Source: Salvelinus alpinus (taxonomy: Eukaryota > Chordata > Actinopteri > Salmoniformes > Salmonidae). Taken from it: 64,000 nucleotides of DNA. The DNA lies in assembly GCF_045679555.1 (NCBI RefSeq), contig NC_092120.1, forward strand, positions 10,965,305 to 11,029,304, written 5' to 3'. The notes below the pieces were generated by a model. That model searched no databases, was not told the origin of the DNA, and saw only the letters and a program-made list of their open reading frames with translations. Position 1 is the stretch's first letter; the number at the start of each line of letters is the position of its first letter. Positions 9,459 to 64,000 of the stretch are shown in pieces. The position numbers were made by a program, and so were the translations under genes.

Positions 9459-9583
9459 TAAGTACTTCACACCACTGCATATCAGCGAGAAATAATTTTC
9501 AAAAATCAAAAGGTTAAATTACCTTTTTATAGGGTTAGGGTTCCCACAGAGACATATTACCATGTTACAGCCCTTGTTTTCAG

Positions 9584-30084: not shown

Positions 30085-30132
30085 GTTTTCTCTCTCTCCC
30101 TCCTGTCTCTGTCTGCTCCAGGCGAGGCTAAG
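30085..30132 (+). promoter_or_regulatory. plekhf2: plekhf2 splice acceptor and 5' UTR remainder of the coding exon
   Basis: A pyrimidine run (tttctctctctccctcctgt) leads to CTGCTCCAG ending at 30121, followed by GCGAGGCTAAG and the start ATG. The coding exon therefore starts at 30122 and at least one non-coding exon lies upstream. Confidence 0.85.
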
Positions 30133-30879
30133 ATGGTGGACCGGCTGGCGAACAGCGAGGCCAACTCCAAGCGGATCCAGGTAGTCGAGGGCTGCTTCGG
30201 CGCGGCGGGCCAGCCACTGGTCATACCGGGCCGCGTACTCATCGGTGAGGGTGTGCTCACCAAGCTGTGTCGCAAGAAGCCCAAGGCGCGGCAGTTCTTC
30301 CTGTTCAACGACATCCTGGTTTACGGCAACATTGTCATCCAGAAGAAGAAGTACAACAAGCAGCACATCATCCCGCTGGAGAGCGTCACCATCGACACGG
30401 TGGCTGACGAGGGCGACCTGCGGAACGGCTGGCTCATCAAGACACCCACCAAGTCCTTCGCCGTCTACGCCGCCACCGCTACCGAGAAGTCAGAGTGGAT
30501 GAGCCACATCGGCAAGTGCGTGGGCGACCTGTTGGAGAAGAGCGGCAAGGCGCCGACTGGCGAGCACGCCGCCGTCTGGATCCCAGACTCAGAGGCCACC
30601 CTCTGCATGCGCTGCCAGAAGATCAAGTTCACGCCCCTCAGCCGCCGCCACCACTGCCGCAAGTGCGGTTATGTGGTTTGTGGCCCGTGCTCTGACAAGA
30701 AGTTCCTGCTGCCCAGCCAGTCATCCAAGCCGGTGCGTGTGTGTGAGTTCTGTTACCTGCAGCTGGCCTCCGCAGGAGGGGGGATGGGCTTAGGCCCACG
30801 CTCGGACTCCTACAGCCGGTCAGGGTCAAAGTTCAACAACGTGTCGGACGACGAAGATGAGGAGGACAGCAGTGACTGA
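30133..30879 (+). CDS. plekhf2: Phafin-2, PH and FYVE domain protein (plekhf2), complete single coding exon
   Basis: A 248-residue protein matching PLEKHF2 from end to end; the human protein is 249 residues. It binds PI3P on early endosomes and takes part in endosome fusion, receptor trafficking and autophagy. A PH domain spans about residues 34-131 (GVLTKLCRKKPKARQFFLFN, ending near EWMSHIGK). A FYVE zinc finger spans about 149-212 with all three PI3P-binding signatures: WIPD (149-152), RRHHCRKCG (171-179) and RVC (202-204), plus the paired zinc-binding cysteines. The C-terminus is the usual acidic SDDEDEEDSSD tail. The whole CDS sits in one exon, as in other vertebrates, and is GC-rich unlike its AT-rich surroundings. 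The ATG follows a splice acceptor by 11 bases. Salmonids often keep two copies of such genes; this may be either. Confidence 0.97.
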   Translation: MVDRLANSEANSKRIQVVEGCFGAAGQPLVIPGRVLIGEGVLTKLCRKKPKARQFFLFNDILVYGNIVIQKKKYNKQHIIPLESVTIDTVADEGDLRNGWLIKTPTKSFAVYAATATEKSEWMSHIGKCVGDLLEKSGKAPTGEHAAVWIPDSEATLCMRCQKIKFTPLSRRHHCRKCGYVVCGPCSDKKFLLPSQSSKPVRVCEFCYLQLASAGGGMGLGPRSDSYSRSGSKFNNVSDDEDEEDSSD

Positions 30880-44081: not shown

Positions 44082-45062
44082 TATGATAACCACTTATTAC
44101 TAAGAACAACATAGCCGTTTTACCTCCTTCACTTTATATTTAGATCGTTTGGAGGGTGGAAAACTGTTTGAACTGTGTTTGGAGGGAGCAAATCACAGTT
44201 GCCTCTGTCCACAATTACACACAGCTGACATTAATCTCACTCCACTGCTTTCTTTCAATCTTATCTGAGGGTCGTTGCCAACAAAGCGCAAATTGATATT
44301 TGGGCAATTTTCTAAAATGTTTTCTCATTGGGTGTTTATGCAGAGCTTTAAAGGTATGGCTCTTGACCAGAAAATGCATACCTAACCTATTTGTTGTTGA
44401 TTCGGAGAGCTTAGGGGCATTTTTCTCAAAAACACTGAATTGACAAATATATTTTTTACCAAAATGTGAGATCAAGTAGGCCTAGTGATGATGAAAAGTT
44501 TGACTGTATAGTGTTAGGTCATATTAGGCTTTTTGTAGCTGATAAAATTAGTCAAGGGTTTGTTGTTGATCAGCTATAGTTTGATCAGTTGGTATAGGTT
44601 CAAACAAAAGCCTGCAGTCTCTGTGGGTCTCCACTCTCCATGGACCAAGATTTCAAAAACAGTTGTAGGGGTGTGAAGATTTTGTTGTTAGCATATGACA
44701 TCACAAAATGCAAAGTAGGGCTGCTTTTATCTTGGCTTTGAACCTTTCTCTTCATTTCTAACCCATGAAATGGAGGATTGGGTCATCTCAGAAATCTCAG
44801 GTAAAAGCAACAATTTAAGGCGATTTTGAAAGAACTAATAGCGCCCTCTTTTGGGTTTCATGTACAGGCACAATTGAACTCATAAAGCAGGCGGCAAATC
44901 TTTGTTTTACATCATGGCACCTGATAATTGTCACTGTACATTACGTCAGAGCAAGAGTGTTTTTTAAGGCCATGTGACAATCTGTCAGACGCAAATATCT
45001 GGTTTGATATCGGTCTCAGCCTACCTAAAATCATGGCTGATAGAAGAGGATAGAATTCAACC

Positions 45063-45882
45063 ATGATTACCCGTAGCTCCCAGGAAGTTCTCTCTCCAGG
45101 TAACAAAAATAAAAGTAGCCTAGGTGCCTACCTAGTCTTGTAAAGTAGGCTAGATAAATACATTTAGGCTACATTATAAATGGGTATATGGAAGGAGAAG
45201 GGATGGAAATGACAGAATACATTTTAGAATCAAACTATATTGACCTTGTTATTATCAAAAAACTGAACCTAATATTTAAATATCTGTTTAAAAGGAGGTT
45301 ATGATTAACTGATTGCCCCTCTCTGTTCTCCCTATAGCCTCCAACAGCTCTGACCAGGGTTGGTGTCTGAATGGAGGCGGAAGAGGAAAAGGTCTGGGTT
45401 CCACAACGCCAAAACTGCTTCCCCCAACTTAGAATGTAGTGGGTCCAAGGAGCCAAAGGCTTTCCAGGAGCTATTTGCTGTGCCGGCTCCCCCTGCACCC
45501 AAGGTCCTGTGGCGGCGTCCAGGGAACGTTAGCCAGAGATGCAGCGCTGTGACCTCCAGGGCCTGGGGCCCAGGCAGAGGGGGTTGGATGGAGCATGTAG
45601 GCCATGAGTCTGGTTCAGGGCTGGACCAAGGCCCCTGCCCACTGTGCCTGGTGGGGGCAAAGGGTGACTGCCCCTCCACGTCCCGCCCTAAAGCCACTAA
45701 ACGCCACCGGTAAAAGTGACCACCAAACAGATTCAGAAATAATTTCTGGTTCCATCAGGAGGGAATTCATTTTCACAGCTTTGTTTCGTTTCAGCCTGGC
45801 TGGAAAAGCTGTATGTAAAGGGGGCATTACTGGGGAAAGGGTGCTAAGGTGGCTCTGTCTATGCAGGGACCCGCAAATCTGA
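45063..45882 (+). CDS. Candidate small three-exon gene, unrecognised product
   Basis: Weak prediction. Exon 45063-45099 encodes MITRSSQEVLSP and ends in donor CCAG/GTAACA, with an in-frame stop just upstream. Exon 45358-45709 (acceptor TGACCAG, donor ACCG/GTAAAA) is open for 117 codons in a GC-rich patch and encodes a basic protein with WRRKRKRSG near its start and CPLC near its end. A last exon from 45867 (acceptor CTATGCAG) would add DPQI and stop at 45882; if the second intron is retained the protein stops at 45713. The phases fit and the total is 134 residues. I know no family with this sequence. The minus strand is also open here, so a chance GC-rich patch or a decayed pseudogene is possible. 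Confidence 0.25.
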
Positions 45883-46301
45883 CGGCATGCCGGTGAGACA
45901 ACACACAACTCTTCCCTTTCCTGTGAAAACACATGTTGTCTGTGTGACACTTAATATTGTTTTAGTGTCATACAAAATCTTAAGCCAGTCTGGTTACACA
46001 GTCTGTTTCTGCATCAGCCAACTTGTTGTTGTCCTGCTTGTTTAGCAGAGCAACAAAGAACTGATATATTGTTGAAAGCAGAAACAGACTGGTAGTCTTA
46101 TATATGTTTCTACTCTCACATTCTCAATCTTACACACTTGCAGACTCACCCTACTCACACACTCAAGGGATCTAATCATCATAGACAGCCTTGCAGATTC
46201 GTATATTTTTATAGTGTGAGACATTCTGTCTCATCGATGCTATAACTTTTGACTGTCGGCTCTCTATGGCAGTTGACTATTGATTTGTGTTAGTTTTGCA
46301 C

Positions 46302-46488
46302 AGTGCTCGACTTGGGCAGGAGCTCACCGGAGCTGAGTACCGGCTCCTCACATTTTCTACTGCTTAAACTCCTGTTCCTTTTATAGAATATTAGCTCAAA
46401 TGTACTGTGGAGCTCCTGCACCTAAATGGAATCAGTACCGGACTCAAAATGAGTACCGGCACCTATTTCAATCCAAGTCAAGCAGTGC
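46302..46488. mobile_element. Short hAT-like MITE
   Basis: Ends cagtgctcgacttgg and ccaagtcaagcagtg are inverse complements with one change, flanked by similar 8-mers (gttttgca and cttttgaa). Interior has paired gtaccgg motifs. Confidence 0.55.
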
Positions 46489-47173
46489 TTTTGAATGAAG
46501 CAACTGTAGCTTATTTAAGAAGCCACGGGTCTTTCAAACAAAGAGGTTGCTCTCGATTCCTTCTTACACCTAAACTCCCATAACTCTTGTCCAGTGTCAT
46601 GGATCAAGCACACACTCGCCTTTCCTGGCCCACCAGGGGGCAAGATTCAACTGAAGCAGTTGCAATGGTAGTCTGAGATATTTTCTTGATGGGAGAATGG
46701 AGATCAAATATTCCTCTGGAGTAGTGGATCACACTCTTTTGTACTGTGACATGGCCACCCAAAGTCAATGTGACCTGACACAGGAACAAACACAGGGCCC
46801 AGTGTTGAGCTATAACCCAAATGGGACTGAGCTGTGACTCAGCATTTGAGACTGCTCTGCGGTAATACATGCCTTGGGCCATTGTATTGACAGGCCAATT
46901 CTCACTTAGGTCATCCTGTTACAGTACATTTTATTTCTCTGTGGGCTGTCAGTCAATATAATTGCCCCCCCCCCCCCCGGTCGTTCGCTCCATCTATCCT
47001 GCAAATTTAGCCCCTCTCCTTTCCAGTGGCAGTGTAGGAAAGTAGTTACACAACCTCACCTAACTTTTCTTTCCAGTAGAAAATCTAAACTTTCTTTTAA
47101 TTTAGTGAGATCTTGCGCTGCTCCCTTGCAAATCAGGAAGAATGACCCAGTCATTAAACGAGCCTGTAATTAT

Positions 47174-47201
47174 ACTGAACAAATATATAAATGCAAGTTA
47201 C
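47174..47201. repeat. Short remnant of the ctgaacaaaaatataaatgc Tc1-like end
   Basis: atactgaacaaatatataaa, the left end of the family seen at 3634 and 11147, joined directly to the truncated Tc1 element that follows. Confidence 0.5.
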
Positions 47202-47950
47202 AGTTCTTCCTTGCTGAGCGGCCTTTCAGTTTATGTCGATGTAGGTCTCGTTTTACTGTGGGTATAGATACTTTTGTACCTGTTTCCTCTAGCATCTTCA
47301 CAAGGTCCTTTGCTATTGTTCTGGGATTGATTTGCACTTTTCGCACAAAAGTACGTTCATCTCTAGGAGACAGAACGCGTCTCCTTCCTGAGCGGTATGA
47401 CGGCTGCGTGGTCCCATGGTGTTTATACTTGCGTACTATTGTTTGTACAGATGAACTTGGTACCTTCAGGCGTTTGGAAATTGCTCCCAAAGATGAACCA
47501 GACTTGTGGAGGTCTACAATTATTTTTCTGATGTCTTGGCTGATTTCTTTTGATTTTCCCATGATGTCAAGAGAAGAGGCACTGAGTTTGAAGGTAGGCC
47601 TTGAAATACATCCACAGTTACACCTCCAATTGACTCAAATGTTGTCAATTAGCCTATCAGAAGCTTCTAAAGCCATGACATTATTTTCTGGGATTTTCCA
47701 AGCTGTTTAAAGGCACAGTCAACTTAGTGTATGTAAACTTCTGACCCACTGGAATTGTGATACAGTGAATTTTAAGTGAAATAATCTGTCTGTAAACAAT
47801 TGTTGGAAAAATTACTTGTGTCATGCACAAAGTAGATGTCTTAACCGACTTGCCAAAACTATAGTTTGTTAACAAGAAATGTGTGGAGTGGTTGAAAAAC
47901 AAGTTTGAATGACTCCAACATAAGTGTATGTATACTTCCAGCTTCAACTG
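47202..47950 (-). mobile_element. Tc1 element of the Sleeping Beauty ancestor family, half copy
   Basis: Matches the right half of 7860-9458, ending cttccagcttcaactg at TA (47951). Minus strand 47202-47562 keeps the DNA-binding region (MGKSKEISQDIRKIIVDLHK) open for about 120 codons; the catalytic half is absent. Confidence 0.9.
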
Positions 47951-50900
47951 TATCTGCTCTCTATAGCACAATATAACATCAGAATGTGAGAGGGAAGCCT
48001 CTTGAACTGAGGGTGTGTGGAGGGTGGGATGGGTCGCTAACAACAGTCAGTGCTTTCCTTTTAGTTGCCCTATGAGAGGTTGCCCAGCTGTTCCTGTGGC
48101 TGACCGATGATTTTGCTGGCTGACAATTGTGGCCAGCTTGTTTTTACTCACATTGAAGTTGCTGTATCAGACTGTCATGTTGATGGTTAGGATGCTCTCC
48201 AAACTGCAGTACACCATCTCCAGAATATCTTGACCATCTTATTACTTTGCTCTCTTTCTTCCTATCCTTTAACCCAGATTTCTAGTTTGCAAAAAACTGT
48301 CCTCACAAAACAGACTATGCATATGTCTGAAAAAGGGAAGAATTAAGATAAAACTGAAAATAGATTTTGACCTCAGTCTGAAAGACTGGTAAATGATCTA
48401 GACATATTCAGAGCAAAGACAGAGCTTGGACATTTTTCAAATGTTTTGGGGTTATTCAAGCATAACATTGGCTCCAATCTCTACTGTTTTCTGATAAGTA
48501 CAGCCCCACTGCAAATGCTGGGGCTAGTTCAAAAAGTGAGATATATCTGTACAATTCATGTTTGAGTTGTGAAAGACATTTAAATAAAGCACATGATCTA
48601 TGTAAAACTTTAAAAAATAAAGATTGAGACAAAGACAAGTTGGAAAAAAATCACAAGTTCTCTTTGAAATATTCTTACAAAACAAATCAAAACATGAATG
48701 AATGGAAGAGAGTTACTGAGTTTCTCTGAAAGGAGAGTAATCAAGTCCTTTCATTTCTTTTTTGATTCTATTCCATGTATTAAACTTTGCTGAATCTCGT
48801 TGATAATTATTTTGTTCACATTCTCGTATTCCTTGGCAACATATTAGCTGCACTACCAAACCAACATGCTTGGTATTCAGTCAGTGTCCAAAATTGTGGC
48901 TCTGTCAGATGAGAGTTGATGATTTATATAAATATAATCTATGTGTATCTGCCTGCTGGGCTACTGGACTTGTGAAGCATACATTTCCCAGAAATTGTTT
49001 TCCCATGAAAAACGGGAGAAGGTAGACATCACAGCTACACACGATTCCTTTACTTCCTAGCAGATGGCTGTCCTGTAGCACAACAGCGTAGACAACCAAA
49101 GAGTTCTAACCTTTATGCATTTGAGTTTCTTGAAAACATTGTTTAGTTTTGGGAACAAAACAATTCTGTCAGTGCAAGAGTTTTTTATTAATACAATATG
49201 TGATTGAATAGGGTTCCTAAGTTTACAAAGAGACACCAAAAGTAAGATTAAATGGGTGTGAAAGAGGGTAATTGTAATTGGAACATAAATAATTCACTTG
49301 TTAAAACATTTGATTTCATAATGCTGTACTATTTTGAATGCAGAATGCAATATTCAACCTGTTTTGTGGTTTTGTTAATTTTGATTAATATGAGTTCAAG
49401 TCTAAATGATCACTCTGAAGCTGAAACACTGTTTCCTTCATTAATCAATAGGAATGGCAGGAACAGTAATAATAATTGTAATGAAGGAGACCAAGGGACC
49501 ATAATACCAATTTCATTGGGAGGAACAGTGATAATTTTAATAAGATGAGAACAGCTCAAGCCCCACTCTGTGACAGGTAATCTCCATTGCCCATTGTCTG
49601 ATTGTGACCACATTATGCTAATGACGGAGTCTGCGTTGATTTATGCAAGACCCTGAGGGCAGTGGGAGGCGATAAAGTCACCAGACTGGAAAGGTAGGTA
49701 GGAATTGTATTATCATATAAAAAGGAAGAGACATTTAGTCATGGGAACTGACCTTCATGGCATCATTTGGAGATACTCTGCAGGGATAACAATAAAAGGT
49801 ACTGTAATACAAATTGAAGATATAAGTTTAACTCAAGTAATAATTAACGCTATGAAACAGTAAGGATTTTCATTGTCCTCAGCTTAGCTAACTGAAAAAA
49901 GGCTACATGGTTGTATCAGTCATTAGGATACTCAGTTGATTATATATGTTCCCATCATGTCACAGGCATGCCTGCAGAGCTGTCATTTAGGAGAGACGTG
50001 ATTGACATGACTTAAAAAGTCTACTCCGCCCCCAGAACAACTGGGCAAGTCATCCATCTGTCACATCCTGACAATCCTTTATTTACCTTGCCATCGGCGG
50101 TTTAGATGTTGTCAGTCATGTATTAAGCTAAATAAAAGCTGCCCCAAAAGATACAAAGGAATGAGATGTGGGGGTGAGCGAGGAGATGAAAAAAAGATGA
50201 CAGAAGTTAATGTCATCATTGAAAATAATCCTGCAGCAACAAGAAATGAGAATTATTATGTGGATTATAATTAATAACATTTTTTATAGGGGTTGATACA
50301 TTTTTCCTAGGGGAAAATCAAGTCTCAAATTTCAAAGTGGAAATTACAAACTTCCGTGTCCTTTTTAATCCTCAAATACACTACTAGTTTTACATTTCCT
50401 GCTAAGCAGGACCTTGACCTTGATGACCTTTGGTATATGGGTACTCAATTATATTCAAGGCTATGGTACAGCCAAGGCCTAGTCCAGTCAAGTGAAGATC
50501 AGCTGCCTCACATAAAAGGAAACGTTTACTTGTTTGAGGTAGTCTTCATTGGTCATAATGGTGGCCTTTGCGTACTGAAGTTCAGGATGTTTGTGAAGTG
50601 CTATCATAAGATAGCCTAAAATAGATTCCATTACTGTGTATGGGGACAGCTTCTACTCAACTCCTTTATTTGCTCAGACTGTCGAGGTAGACAGGCAGAC
50701 CTTCCATGCCTTCCCCTACTCTGGGCCTATAATTTACCATCTGAATGGTATTGGAGTTGGTCTTTGTTCACAATCACACAAACAGTGCTTAAATTCTTAT
50801 CTAGCCCATGTAAAACACTGATGAAAATTTCTTCGCTTCGATCAATGTTTAATTTAGACTAATAATATAGTTTTAGTATTGCCAGCGGCTACAGCTTTTC

Positions 50901-51234
50901 TCAAAAGTGTTCTGGCATATAAGGCTTTTCAAGTAGATGTATTGTTGTGTTCGCCTGAATCCTAAAACAGGGTTATTTGGGTCTGATTCATTTTACATGC
51001 TCCTCTTTATCAATATAAGGAGATAATAGTAATTTGGGTAAACCTCTTAAATTGCATATGAATTTGAGTTTGTTTGTTTATTCAACCTTTTTTGAGTGTC
51101 GTTAGGAGGTTAAAATGAGTTGTCGAGGGTGTTAGCCAACAATTAAACATCTTGTAGTTGTGTATAAGGCAGTGGGTGTATCTCACAGCCAGTCTGTGTC
51201 TGAGAAAGGCTTTTGTCTGTAGAGCACACTACTA
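47951..51234. other. Upstream flank of the cd6-like gene, nothing recognised
   Basis: AT-rich, without repeat ends or convincing exons. Any distal regulatory sites of the receptor gene would be here. Confidence 0.45.
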
Positions 51235-51456
51235 TTTGATTTTGTGTCAGAGACGGTGCTTGTGGAAAACCACAAGTTGCAGCAGTGCAAACAGAAATAT
51301 AGTGAGTACACAAGTTCTGACATATACTGCTTTATTCATGATAAGATCAGTAACGTGCATTATTTTTCGTTTGATTGTTATTAATATTAAAAGAACAAAG
51401 TTGTTTCCGGTTGAGGAGTATGCTTAAAGGACCCCGGCCTAACTGTTTTCTGGGAG

Positions 51457-51508
51457 ATGGAACTGTTCAGGACAGCAATACTTCTGTCAGTTCTGGTTCT
51501 CTCTCAAG
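51457..51508 (+). CDS. cd6: cd6-like exon 1, copy a (signal peptide)
   Basis: The ATG opens MELFRTAILLSVLVLSQ and the 18th codon is split after its first base at donor CAAG/GTAACA. A charged start followed by a run of Leu/Val/Ile is a classical signal peptide. This is the first of three identical coding copies spaced 1299 bp apart. In phase (1) it fits the shared exon 2 at 55225. Confidence 0.8.
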
Positions 51509-54500
51509 GTAACATAGTTTAATCTAATATTTCTACTTTGATTGTATTCAACTATATTATCTTTATTGGCTCTTTTGAAGGAAAGTATGACAGTTGTACT
51601 CTATGTACATCAAACACAGCATCAAATGTATTTTAGAATTGTTTGTATGAATACTAAAGATATGCACATCAAAATAGTTGGCAGTGGAGTCACATTTGCT
51701 TTTTTATTATGCTTCAACATCACCATATTTTAGAATTAATTTCTGTCTGTTACGTTTTACTCTACTTTTTGACAGCCATGTGTTGGTTTGTTCAAGAAAG
51801 TAATAACATATTCTTACAAAAAGGGACTGACCGGAGTGATGCCAATTAGGTGTAGGCTAAATGCTGCATAATCTTACAGAGGATTACTTTACTTGCCAAA
51901 GCAAGGAGTTTACTGCAACAGCCAATACGATTCATCGAACACTAGCTAGCTAAAATTCAAAGACCGCTTGACGCAACATAAAAGTACAGGGAATTCAAAT
52001 CAACCAACCATAGTAAACAAGGATTGGCTGAAACGTAAATGTTTTTGTATGAATCACTAATTTGTCACAGAGTGATACATAAACAAAGTGATAGTTCAAA
52101 ATGATTTGCTTTCCGAGGAGGAGAGCTGTGTCATGGGTTAAAGCATGAACAAACTATTTTGCTTCACGAAGATGATTCATTATCTGCATTGATTCCTCAA
52201 ACATTGCTAGTGTGAAATTGGTTTTAATTCAACATTGAGCCACAGATGTTATTCATGGCATATCCATCTAACAACTAAATTAACCAATTGAGGCAGTTGA
52301 TAATAGCTATTATGAAATCCAACGTAAATATGGTGATTTACAGACTCCATATTATATCCTTCTAATGGGACTATTGTGTAGCCACCTTGAAATACCATCA
52401 ACAGACAGTTTACAAAATGGAAAAGATTATTCTGATTAGAGCCAAATTCAATAACCTGTTTGTAATTTACCGCTGCGTGTCCTGGGCTTCATATAGCATT
52501 GACAACACGTGGTAGGCCTAATATCTAAATAACTTTGATTTTGTGTCAGAAACGATGCTTGTGGAAAACCACAAGTTGCAGCAGTGCAAACAGAAATATA
52601 GTGAGTACACAAGTTCTGACATATACTGCTTTATTCATGATAAGATCAGTAACGTGCATTATTTTTCGTTTGATTGTTATTAATATTAAAAGAACAAAGT
52701 TGTTTCCGGTTGAGGAGTATGCTTAAAGGACCCCGGCCTAACTGTTTTCTGGGAGATGGAACTGTTCAGGACAGCAATACTTCTGTCAGTTCTGGTTCTC
52801 TCTCAAGGTAACATAGTTTAATCTAATATTTCTACTTTGATTGTATTCAACTATATTATCTTTATTGGCTCTTTTGAAGGAAAGTATGACAGTTGTACTC
52901 TATGTACATCAAACACAGCATCAAATGTATTTTAGAATTGTTTGTATGAATACTAAAGATATGCACATCAAAATAGTTGGCAGTGGAGTCACATTTGCTT
53001 TTTTATTATGCTTCAACATCACCATATTTTAGAATTAATTTCTGTCTGTTACGTTTTACTCTACTTTTTGACAGCCATGTGTTGGTTTGTTCAAGAAAGT
53101 AATAACATATTCTTACAAAAAGGGACTGACCGGAGTGATGCCAATTAGGTGTAGGCTAAATGCTGCATAATCTTACAGAGGATTACTTTACTTGCCAAAG
53201 CAAGGAGTTTACTGCAACAGCCAATACGATTCATCGAACACTAGCTAGCTAAAATTCAAAGACCGCTTGACGCAACATAAAAGTACAGGGAATTCAAATC
53301 AACCAACCATAGTAAACAAGGATTGGCTGAAACGTAAATGTTTTTGTATGAATCACTAATTTGTCACAGAGTGATACATAAACAAAGTGATAGTTCAAAA
53401 TGATTTGCTTTCCGAGGAGGAGAGCTGTGTCATGGGTTAAAGCATGAACAAACTATTTTGCTTCACGAAGATGATTCATTATCTGCATTGATTCCTCAAA
53501 CATTGCTAGTGTGAAATTGGTTTTAATTCAACATTGAGCCACAGATGTTATTCATGGCATATCCATCTAACAACTAAATTAACCAATTGAGGCAGTTGAT
53601 AATAGCTATTATGAAATCCAACGTAAATATGGTGATTTACAGACTCCATATTATATCCTTCTAATGGGACTATTGTGTAGCCACCTTGAAATACCATCAA
53701 CAGACAGTTTACAAAATGGAAAAGATTATTCTGATTAGAGCCAAATTCAATAACCTGTTTGTAATTTACCGCTGCGTGTCCTGGGCTTCATATAGCATTG
53801 ACAACACGTGGTAGGCCTAATATCTAAATAACTTTGATTTTGTGTCAGAAACGATGCTTGTGGAAAACCACAAGTTGCAGCAGTGCAAACAGAAATATAG
53901 TGAGTACACAAGTTCTGACATATACTGCTTTATTCATGATAAGATCAGTAACGTGCATTATTTTTCGTTTGATTGTTATTAATATTAAAAGAACAAAGTT
54001 GTTTCCGGTTGAGGAGTATGCTTAAAGGACCCCGGCCTAACTGTTTTCTGGGAGATGGAACTGTTCAGGACAGCAATACTTCTGTCAGTTCTGGTTCTCT
54101 CTCAAGGTAACATAGTTTAATCTAATATTTCTACTTTGATTGTATTCAACTATATTATCTTTATTGGCTCTTTTGAAGGAAAGTATGACAGTTGTACTCT
54201 ATGTACATCAAACACAGCATCAAATGTATTTTAGAATTGTTTGTATGAATACTAAAGATATGCACATCAAAATAGTTGGCAGTGGAGTCACATTTGCTTT
54301 TTTATTATGCTTCAACATCACCATATTTTAGAATTAATTTCTGTCTGTTACGTTTTACTCTACTTTTTGACAGCCATGTGTTGGTGTGTTCAAGAAAGTA
54401 ATAACATATTCTTACAAAAAGGGACTGACCGGAGTGATGCCAATTAGGTGTAGGCTAAATGCTGCATAATCTTACAGAGGATTACTTTACTTGCCAAAGC

Positions 54501-57500
54501 AAGGAGTTTACTGCAACAGCCAATACGATTCATCGAACACTAGCTAGCTAAAATTCAAAGACCGCTTGACGCAACATAAAAGTACAGGGAATTCAAATCA
54601 ACCAACCATAGTAAACAAGGATTGGCTGAAACGTACATGTTTTTGTATGAATCACTAATTTGTCACAGAGTGATACATAAACAAAGTGATAGTTCAAAAT
54701 GATTTGCTTTCCGAGGAGGAGAGCTGTGTCATGGGTTAAAGCATGAACAAACTATTTTGCTTCACGAAGATGATTCATTATCTGCATTGATTCCTCAAAC
54801 ATTGCTAGTGTGAAATTGGTTTTAATTCAACATTGAGCCACAGATGTTATTCATGGCATATCCATCTATCAACTAAATTAACCAATTGAGGCAGTTAATA
54901 ATAGCTATTATGAAATCCAACGTAAATATAGTGATTTACAGACTCCATATTATATCCTTCTAATGGGACTATTGTGTAGCCACCTTGAAATACCATCAAC
55001 AGACAGTTTACAAAATGGAAAAGATTATTCTGATTAGAGCCAAATTCAATAACCTGTTTGTAATTTACCGCTGCGTGTCCTGGGCTTCATATAGCATTGA
55101 CAACACGTGGTAAGCTGAAATAACTGATTGGACAGCTGCATGAATACTCTCATAACTACAATACGCATAACTACAATAATTTTTCATTTATCTTAGTTTA
55201 CTTTGTTGTTGTTTGTCATTTCAGGCTTTCTAAATAAAGCCTACTCTGTTCCGGGGAACTTCTCTGGGTCGAGAGAGACTGATGAGCAGCAGACATCCAA
55301 TCTAAGTGAGTTCCAGTTTTATTTAAATGGTTGGAATTATGCTAAAAAGATCCTCAGAACCCGAGCCTCCAATCAAGCTTCATTTGGTTCCGGAGGACAT
55401 TGCAATCTACATCGATCTTACTCTCTGAATACCATCCACCATTCCTTCCTTCCTAAACCCCAAATTCCAATCCCTCGTGCCCATGCAGTCAAATTGCTAG
55501 GTGCTAAAGTAGAGGGATGAATGGGTAAGGTGTCTGTGTGCTTCTTAGAGGGAGGAGACACAACCTCAAGCAACAATCCTGCAGAGAACTTGATTGCTCA
55601 CAAGTCATTATACTGAGATCGAAATGATATGAGGCAAAGGCATTTGTTTTACTATAATGATACAGGTCACCATCAAATAAGCCATAGTATGACAATATTT
55701 TAATTGTTCTGAGGGTTATGATGATGATGCGTAAGGCTCCGTTAGTGCAAAGTGGGAGGAACATCCCATACAAACATGCTCTCTCTAACACACAAACAGA
55801 AAATAAAAAGAAGAAAAGAATGGGTCAATTGTCATTTGTGTCATAGAGGATATCAAATGGTCCGGTGGAGTCAGATTTTGAAGGAAAATGCTATCAATCA
55901 GTTATTCAGTTATAACCATACGACACTAACCTCAATTTCATTCTCTATTTGTTGAACCTAAATTAAGTGAAGACTGAAGTGTGAAATGCAGTACCAAAGG
56001 CTCCAGTGTCACATGATTTGAAACCACTGTGAGTATTTGGTCCCGTGGTGTTTCTAGAATCAGGTTGGTCGACTTCAGTGTCCCCCTCCGAATTCACCAC
56101 CCAGTGACATTTCCACAGGACATGACTCATAGGATGTGGCTGCTCTGCTGAACGTCTGCAGAGCACGGCAACCGATAGGCCAACAAACAGTTAGGGCATT
56201 CAATGTGTGTGGGTATGTGTGTGTATTATGCTGTATAACATGTATAACATGTACTGTACATGTGGCTACACTACATGGGGAAATATAAACAGCCATCTGT
56301 ATTTCACTCTCATATTGATTCTGCATCTCCCCATCCCTCCAGCCATATCTCACCCCCCCAGGCTATCTCAGCACTGCTCTGGGGTTGTCGAGGTGCTCCA
56401 TCAAGGGCTGTGGAGGCCGGTGACCTTTGACCTTGGGTCTGCAGAGTGGGCCAAAGTGGTGGAGGACATATGTACCAACCTGAGCTGCGGGGCAGTGTAC
56501 GAGCTCCGACAGAATGGCACAGCTACTTTAAACTATTCCAGCTCAACGTGTCTGAGCCAGTGTGTCTACAGAGACCTACTTGTGGAGAACTGTACAGAGC
56601 TCTCATACACGGACTGCTCTAACCTGACTGAGATAACCTGTGGTAAGACCCTCATTGCAAAGCTTATGAGTGGATCGGCACAATTTATCTTGAGCAAGAG
56701 TAATAGCTACCGCTGTTGATAAGCAACCACAAACACGTTGTTGCAGTAACGCCTGCAAATTGCATGCCATGGAGAGCCATCGTATGGGCCGTCTCAAGTG
56801 TTTTGTGGACGCTTTGCAACAAGTTCCTCCTTTCAGCACGCTTCCATTTTCAAGCTGCTTTTTAATGATCCTGAGTGAGGCCCAGCTTCTATCGAGGTTA
56901 TCTGATGATCTATGAACTGATTGGTTGATCTGTCCATTCCTCAGGGCACCAGGCCGTGCGATTGGCTGGAGGCTCACACCACTGTGAGGGACGGGTGGAG
57001 TTGTGGAGAGAGGAAAAATGGGGAACGGTGTGTGACGATAGTTGGGACCTGAGAGATGGGGGCGTGGTCTGTGCTCAATTGGGCTGTGGCTCTGCCCTAA
57101 ATGTGAGTGGGGAGGACGGGTCCTTTGAAGCGGGTGTTGGCCAGGTTCTCTTAGACGAGGTGAACTGTGGAGGGAGCGAGAGGAACCTATGGGAGTGTCC
57201 CTCCATGGGGACAGTCAACGACTGTGGACACAAAGAGGACGCTGCAGTGGTTTGTTCAGGTAAGCCTGCAGCTATAATATTATCATTGTCAGTTACTGTA
57301 TTCACAATCATGTCATAGTGTTTTTATATTATCTTTAGATTGGTCTGAATATGGATAGTGCAGTAATAACATGTAAAATACATTACCATGATTGAACATC
57401 TGGTGTCTTGGTGGCGAACCAAGTCCCTATCATAGTGCTGATTTTCAGCACGCTAAATGTCGACAATCAGGATTCTGATGATTGCGAATCAAGAATGATT

Positions 57501-60500
57501 TGGCTCGTGACCTTATCAGCGTGTCTGAATGGATAGCACTGAGTCTCAGTCACACTCAGCACTGACACTGACAAACAAGCTTCAAATCCTCCTACAGTAA
57601 TGCAGAGATCAGGTGATGTGAGAGAGGTCATAAGCAGAAAAGAGACAGCTGCTTTGCATATGAATTATTGTTATTTTCATTAATGAAAAAAAAAAGAAAC
57701 ACACAGGCCTAAGTAATGCATGTCACTCAGAAAGTAGACATACCACGTCAATACCACGTCGCAACAGCTCTGTCTGAGGAAGACCCTCAATGAAAGATGT
57801 TCAACCTGGGAGCCAAGTTCAAGAGTTCCTTGGTGAGAAAACATCCAAACTGCCTTGACCTCAACATGACAACAGTTGTTCGCCACTTCCATGGGTTTTG
57901 AATCTTGCATCTAAATGAACAATTTTTGCTAAATGTATAGTGTGAGTTTTAGTGTGTCTGAAACTCCCGTTCTGTCAAGGCCATGGCTTGTTGACCATGT
58001 TTCCCATCCATTTCGAACACCTCAAGTGATAGTTAATTATGTAGGCCTACTCAAAAGGCTACATCCATCAATATGTGAGTCCTCCACATTTCAAGTACAT
58101 TTTTTAAAGAGAAAACGCACACATTCCTGGCAGTAATTGCCAAATGACTGACTGAAATGTCTAACTTTTGAATAAGAGTCAGATATTGGTTCAATAGATC
58201 ATTAGATACACAGATGGACAAACACAACTCCTCTTGGATTTACAATTTTTGAGCAAATGTTTTTTTTAAGCAAAAATGTTCCCCGTCTTTCAAACAAGAG
58301 TGCCTTGAACACTCAGGAGAAGTGAGCCATGCATCTCTTATACATTCTAGTTCTCTAACACCTCTAGGACTTTTCCATTTCCCTGACAGGAATTCCATCT
58401 CAACCAGGCAACGAGACAGCAGAACAGAACACCCAGACTTCAACCACAGGTGCCTTCAATAGATGCTGACACACATGACCCTCCATCTGTGTAATAATAC
58501 ACCAAGAGTGCCTGCTCTGCTCATATGAACATGTCAAGAAGAATTTGTTATCTAGTCTGTACTCTGCACTATGATTTGTTCTTGTTTCCAGCAGGCTCAG
58601 TTCTACTAGTCACCAGTGCAGAGAGCTGGTCCTCTCCTCCCACAGCTGCTGTCTGGGGCTGCATCGCATTGTCTATAGCCCTCCTCCTCACACTCCTCTC
58701 CAATGCTTCACTCTTCCTGTCTTACAGGAGAAGAGCTGGTGAGTCATCGTGTTTCTCTATTTTTCTTTCTCTTTCATTGCCTCAGACTCAACTGCCACTC
58801 TCCCCATTTGTTCACACCAACAACAACAAACATGCTATCATCAATGAGTAGTAATTAACACTGAGAAACTGCTTTGTCTGAAGGGTATTACATATTCTTC
58901 TCAATGGTTTGCCAATTATGATAATACAACAACACAATGCAATGTGATTCAATACAGTACACAAAGGAAATCACCAAACTGGAACAGTATACATATCACT
59001 GGGTTGGTTGATTGCTCATTAAGAGAGTCCCACCACCAGTGTTGTTTTCACACCAACTTAAAAAAAGCAGCATTTATTATTTCACAAGGATGATAATGTT
59101 TGAATATGTGCCATATGTGACGGTGGTCTAATTCAAATATTTAATTGGTTTTGAGATGTATTGTCCTTATTTTCTTTTCCAACATCAAATACAACAAAGA
59201 CCAACAAACCTATTATCCTAGCTTTGGTATAGAGAAGTTTCAAAGGTAAAACTTTCCCTTCATTACTAGCACTTCTGGTTCACCAAAGACAAGATGGCCG
59301 CCTGCTGTCCATCCAGTCTCAACACACCGACCGAGGGGAGAGAGTCAACCTTCTCACAGTCACCACGGACACAGCTGATTACAGTGAGTTCCTACTGATG
59401 CACTTGTCCTCTCTGTGCCCATTAGTTACTTGCAATTTTAGGAAATGTCTTATTAGTTCAAGTGTCCCATTTGTCAGAATACATTTTCTCTGTGGCCTTT
59501 CATGCAGCTCCACAGTACCTTTCCCAACAACCCTCTCAGAATGACACCGACGCCTTGTGTGACTCTGACTATGAAAACTATGACTTCAATGACCAACCCT
59601 CTATTGCCATGGCTACTGCACTTGGTCTGTTCATCTTCATAGTTTTGGATAAATAGTGAAATTCTAAAAGAAAAAATATGGGAAGTGACACATGGCTATT
59701 AAGGGAGAAAGTGGTCCAAGGACTTGCTCACAGTGCCAACCAAATGGTCTTTTATGTTTTCATTAGTCAGGGTCCTTGACAATGGAGTAAGCACAAGCAG
59801 AGAGCCATGGGAAACCACGCAGACAGCAGAGACCTCTGACGCTCCTGAGAAATATAATATTGTTGCTGAGACAATCAATGGCATTGAGAGAAATAACACT
59901 GCCACCCAAAGCCGTAAGTTACTGTCAGGTTGGGTGAACCAGATTTTTACCATGATCATATTGTGTCCATGTCCGACAGATTTCTTCTTTGTCTTAAAAG
60001 GACATAATGTCCTCTTAAAATCTGGGACTTTACTATAACCGTTTGCAGAATAAGGAATCAGAAAAGTTATAATTTTTTGGAAATTCCCATGGTGACAGAA
60101 AAGTTGAATAAGAGCCCTATTGTAACATACTAGCACTAACAACCATTTGTATGTCCAGTGCATTCGCTGGTGTCATCCAGCACATCTTCTGGGGAATGCT
60201 ATGAAAACATTGAGACACAGGAGAAGGAGCTGCTAGACTCAGGTCAGTTTAAAATGCTCAACGACAAATGCTACAAAAAATAAACAAAATAAAATAATTG
60301 TAGTCCAAAAATGCTTTTGTGGAGTCAGTCAGTGCATCTATGAAATCCATTCTCATGAATCAACGTTAACAGAGTAACTGTGTGGAATGCTAACCACCCA
60401 GGTCCAGATTTGAGAGAAACTGCCCTCACAGACTTGATCTGTGGAAGAGAGCCATCCTTGGGATCGAGTAGTAGTACATCATCAGGGGAATCCTACTACA

Positions 60501-63500
60501 ACGTGGGGATGGCAGTGGAACAGCATCTACAGTCAGGTCCGTTCAAGTCAAAATCACGAGAACAACAACACCTAATTTATCTGGCTGTGTCTAAACACTG
60601 AATGGAGTAGACACAACAGCAAAGGCCTTTTGCACTACAGAACAGTACATGAAAGTATTGTCTTGAAAGTTTTTGGGAGAAAATATGTAGATTCGTAATT
60701 ACTTCACTGGGAGCACATTTTCTCATTTTCTCCTCAGAAAACACCTATACACATTCCCCTGTGCAATCAACAAGTACACACAAGGATCAGCAACAGCCTG
60801 TGAACAGTAGCTTTCACCTACTGAGCAATCAAAATCAAGGTACCTGATATTTCTGATGAGTCTGTGCATGTGTGTTTCAAAGGTGGACAGAATTTCCATT
60901 GAACCATGTAATGTTCCCTGCAGAGACTAATTCTCAGTCTCCTTGCTGGTGTCATATTGTGTTTCAAAACCTGACAAATTAATTTGACGACCACCGGTGT
61001 AATCCCTGAAAGAAAAAGAACAAATCATATTCAAAGGTTTCTCTAAGTTTATAAGCCAATGTGATTTCAAGTTGTGTCAAAACTAAATTCAAAGAACTAA
61101 GGTAGCTTGACAGATGAGGCCATTGGGTATGGGGCATAAACATCTGTGAGGATTTAAATTGTACTTAATTCCTTTAGTTTTCGCCAGATTTACTATCACA
61201 GTGAATAATGGAAAGGGTAGTATTCCTGGCAGGCACATGCTTGAATCCAACAGAGGGAGGGAGAGAGAGCAGAAGAGAGAGACTGTCCTCATTCAGATGG
61301 AGGAAATTGGCCAACTTTCACTCTAATCTGCCATTAAACTAAAGACACTAATACCCTTTATAGACAGACTTTACAGCATGTTGCCTGTAAATTTTCTTTA
61401 TCTGCCAATGTTTTTTAGAACCCAATTCATACAGTCCCATTTTTAACACATTCTTGCCGGGATAAGTATTTTATATCTACTGTGCACATGCCGGCATGAT
61501 TAGGAGTGGGAGTAGATGTGGGTGGATGTTATTTTAATAAATATACACCATCACAAAGAAATCCATTATTAATTTGTTTTTTGGCAGGTCCTAAGAAACA
61601 TTATAGGACCAATACAATTTATTTTCAAAATAATACAAAATAATGGCATATTTTGAGTTTAATTATGTTACTGGTCTGTGCAGCCTATAGGCTACATGGC
61701 TGTGCCATGCATATAAAACCAAGTTATTTTGCTCATTAAACAGAGAAGACACACTTAGGCTACACTGGTCACAGTCAACACACATTTTATAGCAGGCTGA
61801 GAATATAATGAAATATAACAGAATAAAATCCAGAATATTTTTCCCACACAACTTGCGTCACGGCAACGTCATATAAAAAAAAAAGTGATTTTGAAACATA
61901 GTCCAAGGCAAGCCCATGCTTTTTTGATCCACAATCCTCACTTCGCTTTGATAGGGAGCAGGCGTAGGGTCTTACATTGAGAGTCTTCGTCATGATACCC
62001 ATAGAAAATAATAGCAATCTATACTTTCAAAAGCATGAGTCTCCTGTTCATATTTCACCACTGCTGGCTTTTGGAGTTGCCTATATGCGACCTAGCATAA
62101 CAATAGGCCTACGCTTGATTTAGGGTACATTATTGCATACTAAATGTTTCTAATCAGTGATAGATGAGCAAACAAATAGATGAGTTACCACCTCTACTTA
62201 TTTGGCCAGCCAGAGAATTAACCAAATATAGATGGAGATTCAGGTGAAACAAAATCACATTGACAAGTCACAGGCTTTTGGTAGGGAGTAGAACAGGCTA
62301 CCAAGCCACTGAAGATTAGTATTTTTCTCCGCTCATACAGGAGTAATTAAGGCTTAGTTCTCTAATTGTACTTTTTTGCTCATTAGAATTGTTTATTTAT
62401 TATTTAATTTCGAATTATTAGGGGGTGCTGCATCACCCTCAGCACCCCTATTTCCTGTGGCTATGCCATTAATACAAAGGGGTGATTTAAAATGTTCAAA
62501 CATTGATGCATTATCATTAAGGGTAGGTTCCCTTGACAAAGATTAAGCTTAGTCCTTGACATTAAGTCATGTTCAATGGCGGCACCAGGTACCCGTATTC
62601 CCCTACATGGATCACAACTGTGCAGTAGATTCTAGAGTCATGTACTGTCTAATGTACATTGCCTTCATAAAGTATTCATACCCCTTGACATATTCCACTT
62701 TGTTACAGCCTGAATTCAAAATGAATGACATAAATAAAAACACACAATACCCCATAATGACAAAGTGAAAACATGTTTTCAGAAATGTTTGCAATTTTTT
62801 TGAAAATTAAAAATCTATTTTAATTTCAATAAGTATTCACACCCCTGTGTTAATACATGTTAGAATCACCTTTGGCAGTGATTACAGATCTTTCTGGGTA
62901 AATCTCAAAAATCTTTGCACACCTGGATTCTACAATATTTGCACATTATACTTTCTTTAAGTTCTTCAAGCTCTATCAAGTTGGTTGTTTATCATTGCTA
63001 AACAGCTATTTCCAAGTCCGTCCATAGATTTTCAAGCCGATTTAAGTCAAAACTGTAACTAGGCCAGTGTATATTTGGCCTTGTGTTTTAGTTTATTGTC
63101 CTGCTGAAAGGTGAATTTGTCTCCCTGTGTCTATTGAAAAACGGACTGAACCAGGTTTCCTCTAGTATTTTGCCTGTGCTTATCTCCATTCCGTTTTTTT
63201 TATCCTAAAAATAACTCTATTCCTCACTGATGACAAGCATACCCTTAACATGATGCAACCACCACCATACTTGAAAATATGAAGAGGGTACTTAGTGATG
63301 TGTTGGATTTGTCCCAAACATAACACTTTTAAATTGTTATGAATTTGTTAAAATGTCTACAAACATAATTCCACTTTGACATTATGGGGTATTGTGTGTA
63401 GGCCAGTGACACAAAATCTCAATTTAATCTATTTTAAATTCAGGCTGTGTAACAACAAAATATGGAAAAAGTCATGGGGTATAAATACTTTCTGAAGGCA

Positions 63501-63717
63501 TTGTAGATGCAATTGCTGAAAACATGTAGCCTATTGTGGATGTATGTAGATGGTAATGTAAGTCTTTTATACAGATGATTCAAGCAGCTCATCCTCCTCT
63601 GAGCTTTATGAGAACATAGAAGTCCAAGATGAAGAGGGGATTGGTGATGCTACTGTGAAAGAAGACCCGGACCAGTCTCTTTCTGACAGTGACTACGATG
63701 ACATAACAAATTACTAG
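51457..63717 (+). CDS. cd6: CD5/CD6-family lymphocyte scavenger receptor, whole gene span (spliced)
   Basis: A type I membrane receptor of the CD5/CD6 family, which in mammals tunes T-cell receptor signalling at the cell surface. I joined 13 coding exons by eye. All junctions are phase 1, all introns have GT/AG ends, and the sum is 1797 nt, or 598 codons plus stop. Order: signal peptide (1-18), short linker (to about 44), SRCR 1 (45-144), SRCR 2 (145-249), Thr-rich stalk (about 250-287), transmembrane segment (about 288-312), RRR stop-transfer, then a tail of about 280 residues with many Tyr motifs ending in SDSDYDDITNY. Mammalian CD5 and CD6 have three SRCR domains; only two are found here. 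The long tail favours CD6 over CD5, but orthology needs a tree. The first exon is present three times (51457, 52756, 54055). The symbol is therefore provisional; the family call is firm. Confidence 0.88.
52756..52807 (+). CDS. cd6: cd6-like exon 1, copy b (duplicate signal-peptide exon)
   Basis: Same coding sequence, start and GTAACA donor as copy a, placed 1299 bp downstream inside the second tandem unit. It is intact, so it could be used as an alternative first exon or be skipped as an intronic duplicate. Which start is used cannot be read from sequence. Confidence 0.7.
54055..54106 (+). CDS. cd6: cd6-like exon 1, copy c (duplicate signal-peptide exon)
   Basis: Third intact copy of the signal-peptide exon with the same ATG and donor, the one nearest to exon 2 (1.1 kb away). 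A transcript started here needs the shortest first intron, and no other copy of exon 1 would lie within that intron. Confidence 0.72.
55225..55305 (+). CDS. cd6: cd6-like exon 2 (short linker)
   Basis: 81 nt, acceptor TTTCAG and donor CTAA/GTGAGT, phase 1 to 1. It encodes GFLNKAYSVPGNFSG and more, a polar segment of 27 residues with one N-glycosylation sequon (NFS). No SRCR fold is possible at this length; it links the signal peptide to the first SRCR domain. Confidence 0.82.
56343..56642 (+). CDS. cd6: cd6-like exon 3 (divergent SRCR domain 1)
   Basis: 300 nt, acceptor CCTCCAG and donor TGTG/GTAAGA. The product has eight cysteines (QHC, DIC, LSC, STC, SQC, ENC, TDC, ITC) over 100 residues, starts with HCSGVVEVLHQGLWRPVT and ends in TCG, matching the strand order of an SRCR domain. 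It lacks the usual GxVRLxGG opening and WGTVCDD core, as the N-terminal domains of CD5 and CD6 often do. Five N-glycosylation sequons (NLS, NGT, NYS, NCT, NLT) lie in it, so it would be heavily glycosylated. A downstream CAG at 56358-56360 would be out of frame, which supports the acceptor chosen. Confidence 0.85.
56945..57259 (+). CDS. cd6: cd6-like exon 4 (canonical group B SRCR domain 2)
   Basis: 315 nt, acceptor TTCCTCAG and donor TCAG/GTAAGC. It encodes a textbook SRCR domain: VRLAGGSHHCEGRVEL, then WGTVCDDSWDL, VVCAQLGCG, LDEVNCGG, LWECPS, CGHKEDAAVVC. Eight cysteines in group B spacing, one domain in one exon, and flanking phase-1 introns are all typical of CD5, CD6 and CD163 domains. 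By position next to the membrane it corresponds to domain 3 of CD5/CD6, the membrane-proximal domain. Confidence 0.93.
58390..58449 (+). CDS. cd6: cd6-like exon 5 (stalk)
   Basis: 60 nt, acceptor CCTGACAG and donor ACAG/GTGCCT, in phase 1. It encodes GIPSQPGNETAEQNTQTSTT, a Thr/Gln/Ser-rich extracellular stalk with an NET sequon, likely O-glycosylated. The donor is weaker than the others, so the exon may be skipped; skipping keeps the frame. Confidence 0.7.
58592..58738 (+). CDS. cd6: cd6-like exon 6 (transmembrane segment)
   Basis: Encodes the membrane-proximal stalk, a hydrophobic span (AAVWGCIALSIALLLTLL, then SNASLFLSY) and the RRR stop-transfer motif. Donor GCTG/GTGAGT. The acceptor is a tandem CAGCAG, so the exon can begin at 58592 or 58595, adding or dropping one Ala without changing frame. 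A cysteine lies in the first turn of the membrane span. Confidence 0.87.
59270..59383 (+). CDS. cd6: cd6-like exon 7 (juxtamembrane cytoplasmic)
   Basis: 114 nt, acceptor ATTACTAG and donor TACA/GTGAGT. It encodes a basic, polar juxtamembrane stretch (ALLVHQRQDGRLLSIQSQ) ending in TADY. The exon 7/8 junction forms ADYTPQY, with two closely spaced tyrosines. Confidence 0.82.
59508..59624 (+). CDS. cd6: cd6-like exon 8 (tail, first Y-x-N site)
   Basis: 117 nt from acceptor TTTCATGCAG. It contains CDSDYENYDFND, so Y378 sits in a Y-E-N site. The 3' boundary is set at CTTG/GTCTGT because this keeps phase 1 and joins exon 9, but the donor is poor. Without splicing the frame continues for LGLFIFIVLDK to a stop at about 59655, giving a shorter isoform. 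Confidence 0.7.
59767..59913 (+). CDS. cd6: cd6-like exon 9 (tail)
   Basis: 147 nt. The acceptor must be CATTAG: the CAG four bases further on would shift the frame into an early stop. Donor AGCC/GTAAGT is near perfect. It encodes an acidic, Thr-rich stretch with one tyrosine in EKYNIVAETI (Y425). Confidence 0.78.
60159..60242 (+). CDS. cd6: cd6-like exon 10 (tail, Y-x-N module 1)
   Basis: 84 nt, acceptor ATGTCCAG and donor TCAG/GTCAGT. It encodes VSSSTSSGECYENIETQ, a Ser-rich stretch followed by Y459-E-N-I. The same module recurs in exons 11 and 13. Confidence 0.83.
60402..60536 (+). CDS. cd6: cd6-like exon 11 (tail, Y-x-N module 2)
   Basis: 135 nt, acceptor CCACCCAG and donor TCAG/GTCCGT. 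It ends with GSSSSTSSGESYYNVGMAVE: Y504-Y-N-V in the same Ser-rich context as exon 10, so the two look like duplicates of one ancestral exon. Confidence 0.82.
60738..60839 (+). CDS. cd6: cd6-like exon 12 (tail)
   Basis: 102 nt, acceptor TCCTCAG and donor CAAG/GTACCT. Polar Gln/Ser/Asn-rich sequence with one tyrosine in ENTYTHSPVQ (Y521). No recognisable motif beyond that. It joins exon 13 in phase 1 across a 2.7-kb intron that holds a Tc1-like element. Confidence 0.75.
62655..63505. mobile_element. Tc1-like non-autonomous element in the last cd6-like intron
   Basis: Left end tacattgccttcataaagta and right end tactttctgaaggcattgta are inverse complements at TA. Inner text aataccccataatgacaaag and the reverse cattatggggtattgtgt repeat the symmetry. 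No transposase frame. It lies 70 bp before exon 13. Confidence 0.85.
63575..63717 (+). CDS. cd6: cd6-like exon 13 (C-terminus, Y-x-N module 3, stop)
   Basis: 143 nt from acceptor TTTTATACAG to a TAG at 63715. It opens with two Asp and seven Ser, then ELYENIEVQ (Y563-E-N-I), an acidic stretch, and ends SDSDYDDITNY. A C-terminal SDSDYD-type acidic tyrosine site is a shared trait of CD5 and CD6 tails. No AATAAA is seen in the remaining 280 bp, so the 3' UTR probably extends past the window. Confidence 0.87.
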
Positions 63718-63749
63718 CATTTCATCAAACATAGCAGTGAAGTGAGAAC

Positions 63750-63915
63750 TATAAAAACAGAGTCATTTACATTTTAGCAGATGCTATTATCCAGAAAGAC
63801 ATACAGGGGCAATTAAGTGTAATTGCCTTGCTCAAAGGTAGACAGATGTTTTTTCACCTCGTTAGCTTGGGCATTCGAACCAGCGACCTTTCTGTTACTG
63901 GCCCAAAGGTCTTAA
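63750..63915 (-). mobile_element. SINE in the cd6-like 3' UTR
   Basis: cattttagcagatgctatta followed by gggcaattaagtgtaattgc and a box B in reverse (gcattcgaaccagcgacct). This is the V-type SINE arrangement on the minus strand, starting about 33 bp after the stop codon. Confidence 0.6.
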
Positions 63916-64000
63916 CCCCCTTCGCTTCTCCACTGCACAGAATGACCAGCATTGTCAACAAACTGCACTGTCACTGATATTGATTTAATACGGTGACCTG

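What the first reader, a model, noticed from the sequence alone, without database searches (positions are those of the whole stretch)
51235..55112. Triplicated promoter-proximal unit gives the CD6-like receptor three intact signal-peptide exons
Three 1299-bp units, each with the same ATG, signal peptide and GT donor, precede one shared set of downstream exons. All three could splice to exon 2 at 55225 in the same frame, so the protein would not change but start-site number, enhancer copies or first-intron length would. I know of no described CD5/CD6 gene with this layout.
Basis: partly seen in the sequence, partly recalled or inferred. Interest (0 to 1): 0.85.

Follow-up and report, generated by a model that had tools for sequence, protein, structure and literature searches.

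The report
Young triplicated first exon, receptor gene
The start of a CD5/CD6-like immune-receptor gene, with its signal-peptide exon, is present three times in a row in this sequence; it looks like a recent local duplication that leaves the protein unchanged, and similar duplicated first exons are already known in other genes.

Summary
Three units with an exact 1299-bp period lie at 51235-55112, each with the same ATG and 52-nt signal-peptide exon ending in phase 1, all able to join exon 2 at 55225 in frame. Unit 3 matches nothing else in the window. The units differ at 7 bases; the middle unit has no private base and is an exact hybrid of unit 3's start and unit 1's end. Both junctions carry the same 19 nt. 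Simplest history: one duplication, then one unequal crossover (2 to 3 units). Two units are well supported; the third could equally be an assembly loop. 'Three equal promoters' is not shown: units 2 and 3 keep only 222 bp of native upstream DNA. The proposed 5' RACE/CAGE test would not separate 1b from 1c, because offsets 23-553, which include exon 1, are identical in all three. The gene is CD5/CD6-like but shows two SRCR exons, not three. The layout has precedents (PEP1 of Arabis alpina; PGM1 by title). The own-genome search did not complete (8 attempts). Likely a young, perhaps copy-number-variable, mostly neutral duplication.

The parts
51235..52533 (+). Unit 1: 222 bp upstream of the ATG, exon 1a, 1025 bp after the donor; private bases G,G at 51252 and 51256; ends with the 19-nt junction sequence
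52534..53832 (+). Unit 2: no private base; start as unit 3, end as unit 1 (exact hybrid)
53833..55112 (+). Unit 3: 1280 bp; five private bases at 54386, 54636, 54869, 54897, 54930; runs into unique sequence at 55113
52515..52533 (+). Junction 1/2, 19 nt absent at the array's right edge
53814..53832 (+). Junction 2/3, identical 19 nt
51457..51508 (+). Exon 1a, coding part (52 nt, ends in phase 1), signal peptide MELFRTAILLSVLVLSQ (by eye, no predictor run)
52756..52807 (+). Exon 1b, coding part, identical
54055..54106 (+). Exon 1c, coding part, identical
55225..55305 (+). Exon 2, shared
56343..56642 (+). Exon 3, divergent SRCR domain (22.3 bits, below Pfam cut-off 26.1)
56945..57259 (+). Exon 4, SRCR domain (100.4 bits)
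58390..58449 (+). Exon 5, 20-aa spacer (model by eye)
58595..58738 (+). Exon 6, transmembrane segment (by eye)
59270..59383 (+). Exon 7, start of cytoplasmic tail (by eye)
59508..63717 (+). Further tail exons, boundaries not modelled, with tyrosine motifs and the end ...SDSDYDDITNY-stop (stop 63715-63717)
   Evidence: frame translations; stop position read
51259..51276 (+). Perfect 7-bp inverted repeat (CTTGTGG/CCACAAG) starting at base 25 of unit 1; 80-nt DNA fold z -3.0

Best explanation
A young local tandem duplication at the 5' end of a CD5/CD6-like receptor gene. Step 1 (inferred): a segment of about 1.28 kb (222 bp upstream, exon 1, about 1 kb of intron 1) was duplicated at a non-homologous breakpoint, leaving a 19-nt junction. 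Step 2 (inferred): one unequal crossover between two-unit arrays, with its breakpoint in the 531-bp identical stretch, made three units, the middle one an exact hybrid. Consequence: a transcript from any copy encodes the same protein (shown at the level of reading frame). A first exon needs no 3' splice site, so I expect downstream copies to be skipped as part of the intron (inferred). I think it most likely that transcription starts mainly at unit 1, which keeps all native upstream DNA (intron 1 of 3716 nt), with units 2 and 3 as weaker extra starts or silent intron, and that the array is copy-number variable and close to neutral (inferred).
For: Exact period and near identity. All 7 within-unit differences fall in the order that a crossover predicts (unit-1-private sites left, unit-3-private sites right, none private to the middle unit): 8 of 2187 possible assignments, or 7 of 729 if the two neighbouring sites are one event. 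Both junctions are identical, so one is probably a copy of the other. No N in the window. Exon frame shown. Human CD6 promoter position from a review passage. A strong predicted hairpin at the left edge, 0 of 200 shuffles as stable, fits a replication-type first duplication. Precedent for real use of such copies: PEP1.
Against: No reads, RNA or second assembly could be examined. The same hybrid middle unit would arise if an assembler walked a two-unit loop twice. The two bases private to unit 1 sit within 22 bp of its edge and may belong to the breakpoint event, so the crossover test rests on 6 to 7 sites. Units 1 and 3 have 0 of their 5 differences in offsets 23-553 (chance 0.064), a hint that gene conversion may also have acted. 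The hairpin is at one of the two edges folded; the right edge gave z 0.19, 109 of 200 shuffles as stable. Main use of unit 1 rests on analogy with human CD6; copy-number variation was not observed.
Confidence: 0.55

Rival explanations
1. Partial assembly artefact: the genome has two units and the assembler inserted a third by walking the repeat loop twice.
For: The middle unit has no private base and equals unit 3's start plus unit 1's end, which is what such a loop would write.
Against: An unequal crossover predicts the same letters, so nothing here favours the artefact over it. No N in the window, which is weak evidence because a loop error leaves none.
Confidence: 0.25
2. Whole duplication false: two haplotypes of a single-copy locus written in tandem.
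For: Unit 1 and unit 3 differ at 5 of 1258 bases outside the edge (about 0.4%), within what I recall as ordinary fish heterozygosity.
Against: Two identical junctions with 19 nt absent at the outer edges and no gap between copies; gaps between same-scaffold pairs are one of the marks of false duplication (PMC9516828 passage).
Confidence: 0.12
3. Functional promoter array (compatible with the history above): three working start sites raise or buffer expression of the receptor.
For: Exon 1, donor and 222 bp upstream kept in every unit; a RUNX-like site at -188 and a strict ETS-like site at -53, and no TATAWA in the unit (0 against 3.3 expected) (motif consensus recalled); RUNX1/3 and Ets-1 regulate the TATA-less human CD6 promoter by a review passage; PEP1 shows that both exon-1 copies can be used.
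Against: Motif counts near chance (RUNX P 0.65, ETS P 0.20, strict ETS P 0.06; 300 first-order random sequences). Units 2 and 3 lack native DNA beyond -222. The intactness of the copies is explained by youth alone.
Confidence: 0.15
4. Exons 1b/1c are spliced in as internal exons through an AG 16 nt into the unit (52549, 53848), bringing a stop codon and lowering output.
For: A 258-nt exon 52550-52807 would insert an in-frame stop; a branch-like CTAAATAAC precedes this AG at the junctions (by eye).
Against: The acceptor scan was loose: 34 AGs passed in 51235-55225, including the same AG in unit 1 at 51250.
Confidence: 0.04

Closest known systems
PEP1 locus of Arabis alpina (PMC3527215; passages read)
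   Same: Tandem duplication holding part of the promoter, exon 1 and part of intron 1; both exon-1 copies splice to the same exon 2 and in one accession are predicted to give identical proteins; presence varies among accessions.
   Different: Plant MADS-box gene; two copies 6.3 kb apart with diverged upstream DNA and separate start sites by 5' RACE; here three near-identical head-to-tail copies and no expression data.
[quoted passage not shown] passages of that paper read)
   Same: Duplicated first exon feeding one downstream exon set.
   Different: More than 420 million years old by that paper, and there are two isoforms; here the copies are identical in coding sequence.
Human CD5 alternative promoter/exon 1 (HERV-E) and human CD6 gene layout (PMC3195340 passages and reference titles)
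   Same: Same receptor family; in CD6 exons 1 and 2 carry the signal peptide, then SRCR, spacer, transmembrane and tail exons.
   Different: CD5's alternative start is tied to a retroviral insertion, not a tandem copy; CD6 has three SRCR exons, here two were found.
TERT promoter duplications in tumours (PMC9481613 passages)
   Same: A duplicated promoter segment with an ETS motif can raise promoter output.
   Different: There the activity falls as the distance between ETS motifs grows; here copies are 1299 bp apart and include an exon.

Membership tests
CD6 gene | Exons 1 and 2 together encode the signal sequence (human) | tested here: met
   Exon 1 (17 codons) ends in phase 1 and continues into the 81-nt exon 2; cleavage site not predicted by a program
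CD6 gene | Three SRCR exons (human exons 3-5) | tested here: not met
   tblastn of both domains: outside exons 3 and 4 no hit better than E 0.13, but the two exons find each other only at E 0.10-0.16, so that test is weak. Stronger: of 20 plus-strand frames of 40 aa or more over 55306-58600, the ones lying in introns 2-4 leave at most 73 aa open, too short for a 100-aa SRCR exon; 10 of the 20 were scanned, 0 matched SRCR. A frame-broken remnant is not excluded
CD6 gene | About 22-aa spacer exon, then a transmembrane exon, then several tail exons | tested here: met
   60-nt exon 5, 144-nt exon 6 with hydrophobic stretch, tail exons (by eye)
CD6 gene | Closer to CD6 than to other group B SRCR proteins | tested here: inconclusive
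   CD6 5a2e 1.5e-44, but M130/CD163, PIT54 and CD5L rank higher, helped by multiple domains; CD5 chains 0.0013 or weaker
Tandemly duplicated first-exon locus (PEP1-like) | Duplicated segment holds upstream DNA, exon 1 and part of intron 1 | tested here: met
Tandemly duplicated first-exon locus (PEP1-like) | Each exon-1 copy spliced to the same exon 2 | not testable with these tools
   Only frame compatibility shown; no RNA
Tandemly duplicated first-exon locus (PEP1-like) | Separate transcription start sites | not testable with these tools
   No expression data
False duplication of an assembly | Gap between same-scaffold copies | tested here: not met
   No N in 64 kb
False duplication of an assembly | Half or lower read depth, one-copy k-mers | not testable with these tools
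   No reads; own-genome search unanswered

The most novel reading that the evidence does not exclude
A copy-number-variable array of promoter-plus-signal-exon units works as a dosage dial for a lymphocyte receptor: each extra unit adds a start site without touching the protein, and unequal crossover keeps making new alleles.
Probability: 0.08. Interest if true: 0.6.

Novelty: new member of a known kind. Interest (0 to 1): 0.3.

Why it matters
If real, it is a clean case of gene-start multiplication caught early: one duplication plus one crossover, with the protein shielded from change. It would let promoter copy number be compared between individuals in an immune receptor. It also warns that a hybrid middle unit without private bases is equally the mark of a crossover and of an assembler's loop.

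Tried and rejected
Own genome: the genome search gave no answer in eight identical attempts, so copy number elsewhere, paralogues and species remain unchecked. An exact 27-base exon-1 pattern found 0 matches in genome contigs (bacteria and archaea) and in viral contigs, as expected for collections not made of fish.

Mobile-element origin: rejected for the unit within this window, since it matches nothing else there; not excluded genome-wide. Junction copied from nearby: no match of 11 bases or more to a 30-nt stretch across the junction elsewhere in the window, either strand. The right flank has AAATAAC..TGATT in place, like the junction; 33 of 5000 drawn 31-mers scored as well (draws near the array were skipped but stay in the 5000), so the 19 nt may be an older form of the right flank. 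Motif enrichment: none convincing. Tandem Repeats Finder returned 0 rows for 45000-64000 because its longest period is 500. A third SRCR exon was looked for and not found.

Literature: ten searches; four of them named CD5 or CD6 (13, 21, 26, 34). No listed title or abstract start reported a CD5/CD6 gene with tandem first exons; some searches listed only part of their hits (15 of 58, 10 of 13, 10 of 18). I read passages in seven papers and no paper in full. The first teleost CD5 paper (Abos 2018) is not held; I saw only its reference line.
Full report
OBSERVATION. The window holds three head-to-tail units at 51235-52533, 52534-53832 and 53833-55112 with an exact period of 1299 bp. Unit 3 matches the other two over 1283 bp at 99.5% and 99.4% and matches nothing else in the window at E 1e-3. 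The longest repeat expected by chance in such a sequence is about 16 bp. In a window self-comparison (E 1e-10, 80 bp or more) it is the only kilobase-scale near-identical tandem block; the rest are a 300-bp short-unit array, inverted repeats and scattered elements. The window contains no N.

GENE. Each unit has the same ATG (51457, 52756, 54055) and a 52-nt coding exon that ends in phase 1 before GTAACA; exon 2 is 55225-55305. The joined model reads MELFRTAILLSVLVLSQGFLNK... through two SRCR exons, a 20-aa spacer and a transmembrane segment into a tail; later tail exons were only read in frames, not modelled. First introns would be 3716, 2417 or 1118 nt. The exon-1 donor is weak (6 of 9 consensus positions), and no donor-like site of 7 or more was listed in 51235-55224.

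IDENTITY. Exon 4 is a clear SRCR domain (100.4 bits); exon 3 is a divergent one (22.3 bits, cut-off 26.1). Among solved structures CD6 (5a2e) scores 1.5e-44, but CD163/M130, PIT54 and CD5L score higher, partly because they have more domains, and CD5 chains score only 0.0013 or weaker. The exon order agrees with the human CD6 layout given in a review (PMC3195340, passages), but two SRCR exons were found where CD6 has three. The tblastn test for a third is weak, since the two known exons find each other only at E 0.10-0.16; the reading-frame test is better: plus-strand frames lying in introns 2-4 leave at most 73 aa open, and 0 of 10 scanned frames match SRCR. I therefore call the gene CD5/CD6-like and do not file it as CD6. 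The species was not established; a Sleeping Beauty-type transposase fragment in the window fits a fish but does not show a salmonid.

HISTORY. The three units differ at 7 places inside the repeated segment: unit 1 alone at offsets 18 and 22, unit 3 alone at 554, 804, 1037, 1065 and 1098, the middle unit alone at none. The middle unit is thus unit 3's start joined to unit 1's end. One unequal crossover between two-unit arrays predicts this order; it is 8 of 2187 possible assignments, or 7 of 729 if the two neighbouring sites count once. That units 1 and 3 have none of their 5 differences in offsets 23-553 has a chance of 0.064, so gene conversion may also have acted. Both junctions contain the same 19 nt, absent at the outer edges, so one junction is probably a copy of the other. 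The right flank has a similar short motif in place (33 of 5000 drawn 31-mers as good), so the 19 nt may be an older form of that flank. The left edge carries a perfect 7-bp inverted repeat with a strong predicted DNA hairpin (0 of 200 shuffles as stable), while the right edge does not (109 of 200). With recalled mutation rates of 5e-9 to 1e-8 per site and generation, 5 differences in 1258 sites give about 200,000 to 400,000 generations for the first duplication, and zero differences put the crossover below about 117,000 to 235,000 generations; these are rough.

IS IT REAL? For at least two units the case is good: private bases in units 1 and 3, a junction sequence, no gaps. For the third unit it is open: an assembler that walks a two-unit loop twice would write the same hybrid. 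Marks of false duplications in vertebrate assemblies include half read depth and gaps between copies (PMC9516828, passages); depth could not be examined. The search of the window's own genome was tried eight times and never answered.

HOW IT WORKS. Shown: any exon-1 copy gives the same protein in the same frame, because the copies are identical and end in phase 1. Inferred: copies downstream of the active start are removed with the intron, since a first exon needs no acceptor. Including the 52-nt exon a second or third time would shift the frame (52 and 104 are not multiples of 3). Whether units 2 and 3 are promoters is unknown. They keep 222 bp of native upstream DNA; the human CD6 minimal promoter is reported at -506/-146, so they may hold only part of it, while unit 1 keeps all. 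RUNX- and ETS-like sites exist at -188 and -53 but their counts are near chance (P 0.65 and 0.06), and the unit has no TATAWA (3.3 expected). Units 2 and 3 also carry an extra upstream ATG at -201. I judge main use of unit 1 most likely and the array close to neutral.

A CORRECTION FOR THE BENCH. Offsets 23-553 are identical in all three units and contain exon 1 (223-274). Spliced RNA from 1b and 1c is therefore the same unless its 5' UTR begins in the preceding unit, and 1a differs only if the 5' UTR reaches -201.

KNOWN KINDS. PEP1 of Arabis alpina has a tandem duplication with part of the promoter, exon 1 and part of intron 1, both exons splicing to one exon 2, identical predicted proteins in one accession, separate start sites by 5' RACE, and variation among accessions (PMC3527215, passages). 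[quoted passage not shown] Human CD5 has an alternative promoter and exon 1 tied to a retroviral insertion. The present case differs in having three near-identical head-to-tail copies and in its youth. The listings of ten literature searches showed no CD5/CD6 gene with this layout; only four of them named CD5 or CD6.

VERDICT. A confirmed sequence feature, probably a recent tandem duplication, a new member of a known kind. Interest 0.3.

Noticed in passing
window 56343-57259: Only two SRCR exons were found, the first very divergent, where human CD6 has three. A lost, broken or undetected SRCR exon.
   Followed up: partly
window 52555 and 53854: The A at offset 22 of units 2 and 3 (G in unit 1) makes an extra upstream ATG at -201, in frame with the main ATG but ended by a stop after 42 codons.
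   Followed up: partly
window 30076-30879 (+): Long open frame with PH and FYVE domains; PLEKHF (phafin)-like by recall.
   Followed up: partly
window 8720-9460 and 47204-47952: Two copies, 94.7% alike; the second holds a Sleeping Beauty/Tc-type transposase fragment (only this copy scanned).
   Followed up: partly
window 3044-3341: 25-bp tandem repeat, 11.9 copies, 95% matches.
   Followed up: no
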